Origin: Hydrogenobacter sp. T-8
GTDB lineage: Bacteria > Aquificota > Aquificia > Aquificales > Aquificaceae
DNA: 64,000 nt
Direction: 5' to 3'
Assembly: GCF_011006175.1 (NCBI RefSeq)
Contig: NZ_CP048795.1
Coordinates: forward strand, 434,001 to 498,000
In this document: piece after piece, positions 2,122-2,896 of the stretch
How the letters are laid out: each line of letters opens with the position of its first letter
Numbering within the stretch: the stretch's first letter is position 1
Notes under the pieces: generated by a model
Told to the model about the DNA's origin: nothing
Seen by the model: only the letters and a program-made list of their open reading frames with translations
Databases searched by the model: none
Program-made: the position numbers and the translations under genes

Positions 2122-2150
2122 TTGACAAAGGAAAAATTTTTATATATACT
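2122..2150 (+). promoter_or_regulatory. Strong consensus promoter upstream of sfsA
   Basis: TTGACA (2122-2127), a 17-bp spacer and TATACT (2145-2150) form an almost perfect housekeeping promoter. The expected start is near 2157, about 95 nt before the sfsA ATG. The region between contains a hairpin-rich segment described separately. Confidence 0.75.
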
Positions 2151-2156
2151 ATAAAG

Positions 2157-2246
2157 TGTAAATGGATAAAAAAGTTAGGGGAAGTTAGAAACTCCCTCCC
2201 CCTCCCTCCCCTAATTGTTTTGCCCCACCGCCCGGTGGGGCCTTTC
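2157..2246 (+). ncRNA. Candidate small RNA or structured 5' leader
   Basis: Between the promoter at 2122-2150 and sfsA the sequence has no open frame but two stacked inverted repeats: TTAGGGGA (2175-2182) with TCCCCTAA (2207-2214), then a strong GC hairpin at 2222-2241 followed by CTTTCT. A transcript from the promoter would be about 90 nt and end with a terminator-like stem. It could be a free small RNA, or an attenuator in front of sfsA-pncA. It does not match the core motifs of SRP RNA, 6S RNA or tmRNA that I know. The pyrimidine-rich CCCTCCC tract at 2193-2211 could pair with Shine-Dalgarno-like sequences; that is inference. Confidence 0.4.
2222..2246 (+). terminator. Hairpin with intrinsic-terminator character
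   Basis: GCCCCACC (2222-2229), loop GCCC, GGTGGGGC (2234-2241) form a perfect 8-bp GC-rich stem followed by CTTTCT. The U-tract is short, so termination may be partial, letting some transcripts reach sfsA 11 nt downstream. Confidence 0.55.
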
Positions 2247-2251
2247 TAAAA

Positions 2252-2896
2252 ATGAGGTTTCCAGAGCTTAAGAAGGCAAAGTTTATAAAAAGGCTTAACA
2301 GGTTTGTGGGTCTTGTGTTCCTTGAAGATAAGGTCCACAGTGCCTATATAAGAAACACGGGAAGACTAAGGGAGCTTCTGTCAGAAGGCAGGGAGGTTTA
2401 TGTGGCAAAACGAGAGGGTGGGAAACATCCCTTTGAAATAGTGCTTGCAAGGATGGGTCAAAACCTCGTATGCATAGATTCTCATATAACTCCCAAGCTG
2501 TATGCGGAGTATTTAAACCTGCCCTTGTCCTTTGAGCCTCGCTTTGACAATAAGAGGTTTGACCTTTTGGTGGAGGGAAGACCCGTTGAGGTAAAGTCGG
2601 TAAACCTTGTAGAGGGAGAAACCGCACTTTTCCCTGACGCTCCTACAAAAAGAGGAAAAGAGCACATAGAAAAGCTCATAGAGCTATCAAGAGAAGGCTA
2701 CAAGCCCCTTGTGGTCTTTGTAGTCCAAAGAGAAGACGCAGAAGTCTTCTCCCCAAACTGGAGGGTGGACCCAGAGTTTTCTAAGGCACTACTGGACTAC
2801 TTTCAACTTGGACTTGAAATAAGAGCCTACAAATGCACAGTAAGCCTTGAAGAGATTAAATTAAAAGAGGAGATACCTGTGGAGGTTTTGCCATGA
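2252..2896 (+). CDS. sfsA: SfsA-like protein (sugar fermentation stimulation homologue)
   Basis: The 214-residue product matches SfsA in length and layout: an N-terminal OB-like part with RNTGRLRELL near residue 35, and a C-terminal part with the nuclease-like core (RFDLLVEGRPVEVKSV, residues about 103-118; EVK is the typical acidic/lysine motif of the restriction-endonuclease-like fold). The biochemical role of SfsA is not well settled; it was first linked to sugar fermentation genes and has been described as DNA binding. The ATG at 2252 follows directly on the hairpin region. It overlaps pncA by 4 bp (ATGA), so the two are translationally coupled. Confidence 0.82.
   Translation: MRFPELKKAKFIKRLNRFVGLVFLEDKVHSAYIRNTGRLRELLSEGREVYVAKREGGKHPFEIVLARMGQNLVCIDSHITPKLYAEYLNLPLSFEPRFDNKRFDLLVEGRPVEVKSVNLVEGETALFPDAPTKRGKEHIEKLIELSREGYKPLVVFVVQREDAEVFSPNWRVDPEFSKALLDYFQLGLEIRAYKCTVSLEEIKLKEEIPVEVLP

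What the first reader, a model, noticed from the sequence alone, without database searches (positions are those of the whole stretch)
2122..2251. Promoter-to-terminator unit without an ORF upstream of sfsA
TTGACA-N17-TATACT is followed by two inverted repeats, a CCCTCCC-rich loop and a terminator-like hairpin within 95 nt. It has the structure of a small RNA or an attenuator. The C-rich segment could bind G-rich Shine-Dalgarno sites.
Basis: partly seen in the sequence, partly recalled or inferred. Interest (0 to 1): 0.55.

Follow-up and report, generated by a model that had tools for sequence, protein, structure and literature searches.

The report
Conserved C-rich small RNA of Aquificaceae
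The spacer holds the gene for a roughly 90-base small RNA with a nearly unchanging C-rich stretch, kept across a whole family of heat-loving bacteria; two relatives were already seen as transcripts in Aquifex aeolicus, but their job is unknown.

Summary
The promoter-to-terminator unit at 2122-2248 is the local copy of a small RNA found at E<=1e-7 in 54 of 64 genomes of its family and 10 of its 11 genera. The core is an almost invariant, mostly unpaired CUCCCUCCCCCUCCCUCCCC followed by a terminator hairpin. That hairpin is fully paired in all 46 distinct sequences, and 5 of its 8 pairs covary. A TTGACA/TATAAT-type promoter lies upstream in 44 of 50 copies, against 5 of 9802 random stretches. 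No Rfam family matches. Two homologues fall exactly on Aquifex aeolicus transcripts n68/Aae-65 and n75 (PMC4227106), so expression of the family is already in print, without a function. sfsA follows in only 24 of 52 family copies and sits elsewhere in other genomes, so a cis attenuator is not the general role. Most likely it is a trans-acting small RNA whose C-rich seed pairs with G-rich ribosome-binding sites, probably with Hfq (genes in 10 of 10 genomes). Target searches found no excess of long complementary sites: the mechanism is inferred.

The parts
2122..2150 (+). Promoter: TTGACA (2122-2127), 17-nt spacer, TATACT (2145-2150)
   Evidence: 11 of 12 matches. The same kind of promoter lies upstream in 44 of 50 homologues, 5 of 9802 random stretches.
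2157..2248 (+). Predicted small RNA of about 92 nt; the start is inferred as about 7 nt after the -10 box
   Evidence: Inference. The same rule applied to the A. aeolicus homologue gives 989703, and the published 5' boundary of n68 is 989704.
2175..2181 (+). 5' G-rich arm UUAGGGG, able to pair with 2208-2214; a local feature, not conserved family-wide
2192..2211 (+). Invariant C-rich segment CUCCCUCCCCCUCCCUCCCC, the proposed seed
   Evidence: Alignment A1, 47 sequences; unpaired in the consensus structure
2215..2221 (+). U-rich linker before the hairpin, a possible Hfq contact (inferred)
   Evidence: TTTG at the start of the stem is invariant in A1
2222..2248 (+). Intrinsic terminator: 8-bp stem, GCCC loop, tail CUUUCUA
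   Evidence: 100% of cells paired in 46 distinct rows, 5 of 8 pairs with double changes, 59 such cells
2252..2896 (+). sfsA, next gene, start codon 4 nt after the terminator tail
   Evidence: Pfam SfsA 2.2e-36 and SfsA_N 6.3e-17; spacing

Best explanation
Positions 2122-2248 are a stand-alone gene for a small regulatory RNA of about 90 nt. Transcription starts near 2157 from a strong sigma-70-type promoter and ends at the hairpin 2222-2241. The RNA carries a C-rich segment (2192-2211) that is conserved in sequence and has no conserved partner. I propose that it acts in trans: the CUCCC/CCCUCCC repeats pair with G-rich Shine-Dalgarno regions (GGGAGG-type) of target mRNAs and block ribosome binding, with Hfq holding the U-rich/terminator end. 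Shown here: the gene architecture, its conservation, the terminator covariation, its independence from sfsA, and that two homologues coincide with published A. aeolicus transcripts. Inferred: action in trans, Shine-Dalgarno pairing, and the role of Hfq. Targets are unknown.
For: Family-wide conservation: 54 of 64 genomes at E<=1e-7, 10 of 11 genera (my count of its listing). The C-rich block is invariant apart from length variants and one C-to-A change at its last base but none else, while the leader varies. The terminator helix covaries, with no broken pair. Promoter in 44 of 50 copies. Many different neighbours: sfsA, thymidylate kinase, a membrane transporter, a metallophosphoesterase, an ABC ATPase, a purD-type gene. 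The gene is therefore kept for itself. A. aeolicus homologues lie at 989741-989815 (+) and 1168992-1169067 (-), inside n68/Aae-65 (989704-989840 +) and n75 (1168974-1169071 -), which have dRNA-seq reads; n75 also has a Northern blot. Hfq genes are present in 10 of 10 genomes tested. The C-rich segment pairs better than the 16S anti-SD tail with GGGAGG-type sites (for example GGGGAGGG, -18.2 against -10.9 kcal/mol), though worse with the plain AAGGAGGUG (-9.0 against -14.0). In the window, 12 of 63 start regions hold a 6-nt perfect complement against 19 of 1260 random 17-mers (the starts were chosen for good SDs, so this is biased upward).
Against: 9-nt complements near start codons are not in excess over the reversed pattern in 8 genomes (122 against 139), nor is GGGGAGG plus ATG (138 against 167). 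Of 34 fetched sites of the first kind only 2 look like clear gene starts, and of 20 of the second kind 3 do; no coherent set of targets emerged. In the window sequence the C-rich run can be partly closed by the local UUAGGGG arm. The U-tail is short (CUUUCUA), and the simple scan did not list this terminator. No expression data exist for this organism here. The n75 Northern blot showed both strands at similar intensity.
Confidence: 0.55

Rival explanations
1. Protein-binding decoy: the C-rich single strand is a fixed binding site for an RNA-binding protein (Hfq, Rho, a cold-shock or S1-type protein), and the RNA sequesters or guides that protein rather than pairing with mRNAs.
For: The C-rich block is far more rigidly conserved than a many-target seed needs, and no target enrichment was found. 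Two Hfq-type genes per genome in 10 of 10 genomes.
Against: No known protein with this exact specificity was identified here. The C-rich block varies in length and order in outer groups, which suits repeated pairing modules.
Confidence: 0.2
2. Cis leader and attenuator of sfsA: the terminator limits read-through into sfsA, and a signal opens it.
For: In all 24 sfsA-linked copies the start codon lies 3-8 nt after the terminator tail, so any transcript from this promoter that reaches sfsA must read through.
Against: Only 24 of 52 family copies are followed by sfsA. sfsA exists elsewhere in 7 of 7 genomes tested whose RNA copy is not sfsA-linked. No conserved alternative helix.
Confidence: 0.12
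3. DNA-level element: the template strand holds four G-tracts that could form a G-quadruplex.
For: Four or more C-tracts of at least 3 on the coding strand in most family copies.
Against: 26 of 85 rows tabulated have only three such tracts and 3 have two, two of those being truncated or containing an N. Promoter and terminator are kept around the tract.
Confidence: 0.05
4. Short coding gene with proline codons (a leader peptide).
For: C-rich codons would read as proline.
Against: No ORF of 40 aa or more. Length variants of +4 and -1 nt in the C-rich block shift the frame. All positions are conserved alike, without a wobble pattern.
Confidence: 0.02

Closest known systems
Aquifex aeolicus ncRNA candidates n68 (Aae-65) and n75 (Lechner et al. 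2014, PMC4227106)
   Same: Same strand and overlapping coordinates as the homologues found here. The n68 5' boundary is 1 nt from the start predicted from the promoter. Published reads; Northern blot for n75.
   Different: Listed as two separate candidates of unknown function; the passages I read do not link them as paralogues or to named other genera. A. aeolicus has two copies, the window genome one strong copy.
NfeR1 / alpha-r14 (cuckoo) small RNAs of alphaproteobacteria (PMC10746234, passages seen)
   Same: An ultraconserved CCUCCUCCC anti-SD motif in unpaired regions, with stems that vary in sequence; pairs with translation starts.
   Different: Three hairpins each carrying the motif in NfeR1; here one uninterrupted C-rich run next to the terminator. 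No sequence relation was tested.
IsrR of Staphylococcus and FsrA of Bacillus (PMC9410917, passages seen)
   Same: Single-stranded C-rich regions that recognise Shine-Dalgarno sequences; a stand-alone gene with a terminator (IsrR).
   Different: Both are Fur-controlled iron-sparing RNAs; no Fur site was recognised by eye in the window copy. Different structure and bacterial phylum.

Membership tests
A. aeolicus n68/Aae-65 and n75 family | Sequence and structure homology to the two transcribed loci | tested here: met
   One covariance model finds the window copy (96.3 bits) and both A. aeolicus copies (76.8 and 66.7 bits). n68 was among the sequences the model was built from; n75 was not.
A. aeolicus n68/Aae-65 and n75 family | Expressed as a small transcript | not testable with these tools
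   Published for A. aeolicus; no RNA data for the window organism.
C-rich anti-SD trans-acting small RNAs (functional class: NfeR1, IsrR, FsrA) | Own promoter and intrinsic terminator, gene independent of its neighbours | tested here: met
C-rich anti-SD trans-acting small RNAs (functional class: NfeR1, IsrR, FsrA) | Conserved unpaired C-rich motif with stems variable in sequence | tested here: met
   in the window copy alone a local arm can close part of it
C-rich anti-SD trans-acting small RNAs (functional class: NfeR1, IsrR, FsrA) | Base-pairing with Shine-Dalgarno regions of defined mRNAs | tested here: inconclusive
   No excess of long complements; short 6-nt complements common at starts but biased
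C-rich anti-SD trans-acting small RNAs (functional class: NfeR1, IsrR, FsrA) | Chaperone dependence | not testable with these tools
   Hfq genes present in 10 of 10 genomes; binding not testable. Dependence differs within the class (PMC9410917).
Cis attenuator or riboswitch of sfsA | Constant association with the controlled gene | tested here: not met
   24 of 52 family copies
Cis attenuator or riboswitch of sfsA | Conserved mutually exclusive structures | tested here: not met
   Only the terminator helix is conserved
Any Rfam 15 family | Reaches a gathering score | tested here: not met
   only a tRNA in the window; best E 0.082, all under gathering

The most novel reading that the evidence does not exclude
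An old, phylum-wide family of 16S-tail-mimicking small RNAs in Aquificota. One C-rich seed is kept in Aquificaceae, and duplicated siblings exist in Aquifex and in the Persephonella group. Siblings there sit behind different promoters, one with an FNR/CRP-like TGAT-N4-ATCA box. Together with two Hfq paralogues they would form a deeply conserved network that tunes translation of genes with GGGAGG-type ribosome-binding sites.
Probability: 0.25. Interest if true: 0.75.

Novelty: new member of a known kind. Interest (0 to 1): 0.5.

Why it matters
Trans-acting small RNAs usually diverge fast. A 20-nt motif kept across a family, with likely relatives across the phylum, in hyperthermophiles near the base of many bacterial trees would give a tractable case of an old conserved RNA regulator. 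The work also joins two orphan A. aeolicus transcripts into one family and gives them a strand: the conserved promoter and terminator lie on the C-rich strand. The 2014 paper left the polarity of n75 open.

Tried and rejected
Rfam at gathering and at relaxed thresholds: nothing. A conserved 5' hairpin (GGGAG/CUCCC): no double changes, no better than shuffles. Perfect 9-nt complements near starts: 122 against 139 for the reversed pattern in 8 genomes; GGGGAGG near ATG: 138 against 167. Of these I fetched 34 of 122 and 20 of 138 and found 2 and 3 clear gene starts, with no shared theme. An idea that sfsA uniquely lacks an SD because the terminator hides it was dropped, since sfsA has a weak SD in most unlinked genomes too. 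Matches of the 21-mer outside Aquificota score only 10.8-15 bits with the model (L183, L186, L193, L194), so I treat them as chance. L197 is titled Acidobacteria, but its contig has the length of a contig of genome G004 of the window's genus, so I did not count it as outside. G-quadruplex and leader-peptide readings were judged. Alignment A1 holds 47 of 52 located family copies (5 second copies left out), and 4 contig-edge fragments fetched were not aligned; the model used 34 of those 47. Willkomm et al. 2005, the source of Aae-65, is not held; I know it only from the citation in PMC4227106.

Full report
Observation. The spacer between ORF 285-2105 and sfsA (2252-2896; Pfam) has no ORF of 40 aa or more. 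Folding of 2157-2248 beats shuffles at z -2.78.

Conservation. DNA searches found the element in 12 of 14 genomes of the genus (two further genomes gave only chance-level matches), and with the core query in 51 of 112 genomes of the order, all in the same family. Public titles of identical 21-mers are mostly Aquificaceae, Aquificota, Thermocrinis, Hydrogenobacter and Aquifex. In 47 aligned family copies the C-rich block, its AAA lead and the TTTG at the foot of the terminator are essentially fixed, while the leader is free. The terminator stem changes sequence but always pairs: 368 of 368 cells, 59 double-change cells, shuffled mean 12.7. sfsA proteins in linked genomes range from 52.5 to 100% identical to the window's, so the RNA core is much more constrained than its neighbour.

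A gene of its own. TTGACA-N16-18-TAWNNT lies within 90 nt upstream in 44 of 50 copies, against 5 of 9802 random stretches. The six without it are five second copies of genus g2 and G048. Neighbours differ by genus: sfsA in g1, g4, g8 and g9 (24 of 52 copies), otherwise thymidylate kinase, a membrane transporter, a metallophosphoesterase, an ABC ATPase, a purD-type gene and others. sfsA is elsewhere in the genomes tested that lack the link.

Already seen as RNA. Lechner et al. 2014 (PMC4227106; abstract, found passages and section 30 read) list n68 at 989704-989840 (+), noted as Aae-65 of an earlier study, and n75 at 1168974-1169071 (-). The homologues lie at 989741-989815 (+) and 1168992-1169067 (-). 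The -10 box of the first ends at 989696, predicting a start at 989703, 1 nt from the published boundary; the second published boundary falls directly after a TTTAAT sequence. The published 3' boundaries lie 25 and 18 nt past the hairpin tails. n75 gave signals on both strands and its polarity was left open. The promoter and terminator of the family argue for the C-rich strand, though the n75-type copy itself lacks the clear promoter.

Wider relatives. The model finds likely relatives in a second family of the order: 14 of 41 genomes (handles G064-G104) at E<=1e-7, by my count. A model built only from those relatives finds the window element back at 38.7 bits, against 14.8 for the next best place in the window. 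They come in two classes: one with the promoter directly before the C-rich run; the other almost invariant, with TATGATRAAAATCATT upstream in 7 of 7 aligned copies. That resembles an FNR/CRP-type box (consensus recalled). Proteins with the Crp-type HTH exist in all 6 genomes tested, but that HTH is found in all 14 control genomes too. Hits in a third family are weak (E from 8e-6) and some lie just after a tRNA-like sequence; common descent there is open. Low-complexity C-runs may inflate all distant scores; E-values from the model are rough by the tool's own note.

Mechanism. The best reading is a trans-acting RNA with a C-rich seed for G-rich Shine-Dalgarno sites. Support: conserved C-rich run without a conserved partner, stronger pairing than the 16S tail with GGGAGG-type sites but weaker with plain AAGGAGGUG, Hfq genes in 10 of 10 genomes (A. 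aeolicus Hfq binds U-rich RNA, search listing and passages of PMC5379935), and working analogues with the same logic, NfeR1 and IsrR/FsrA. Against: no excess of long complements at starts and no coherent targets. A protein decoy remains the main rival.

Novelty. I found no family description in Rfam, and in paper searches the only listed paper I recognised as bearing on these loci was Lechner et al.; most subscription journals are not held. It is a new, well-conserved family of a known kind, with two members already detected.

Noticed in passing
L149, L155, L158, L163, L164, L165, L167 (upstream of the second-class C-rich RNA): TATGATRAAAATCATT (TGAT-N4-ATCA, FNR/CRP-like) is invariant in 7 of 7 copies, suggesting that a sibling RNA is redox- or CRP-family-controlled.
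   Followed up: partly
Genomes G000, G003, G014, G022, G042, G046, G050, G057, G079, G099: Each of the 10 genomes has two Hfq-type matches over the Pfam cut-off, about 95-101 and 70-84 bits; one of the weaker ones (G050) holds a stop inside the match.
   Followed up: no
L082, L090, L094, L098 (upstream of the second copies in genus g2): A near-palindrome of the type TTGCAAAAAATTTGCA overlaps the likely promoter, as if these paralogues were under a repressor.
   Followed up: no
L159 and L166: A weak C-rich RNA candidate lies directly downstream of a sequence that reads like a tRNA (ARAGORN not run).
   Followed up: no
L197 (RFFP01000015.1): A record titled Acidobacteria carries the 21-mer on a contig of the same length (98,060) as one of G004, a genome of the window's own genus; the title looks wrong.
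   Followed up: partly
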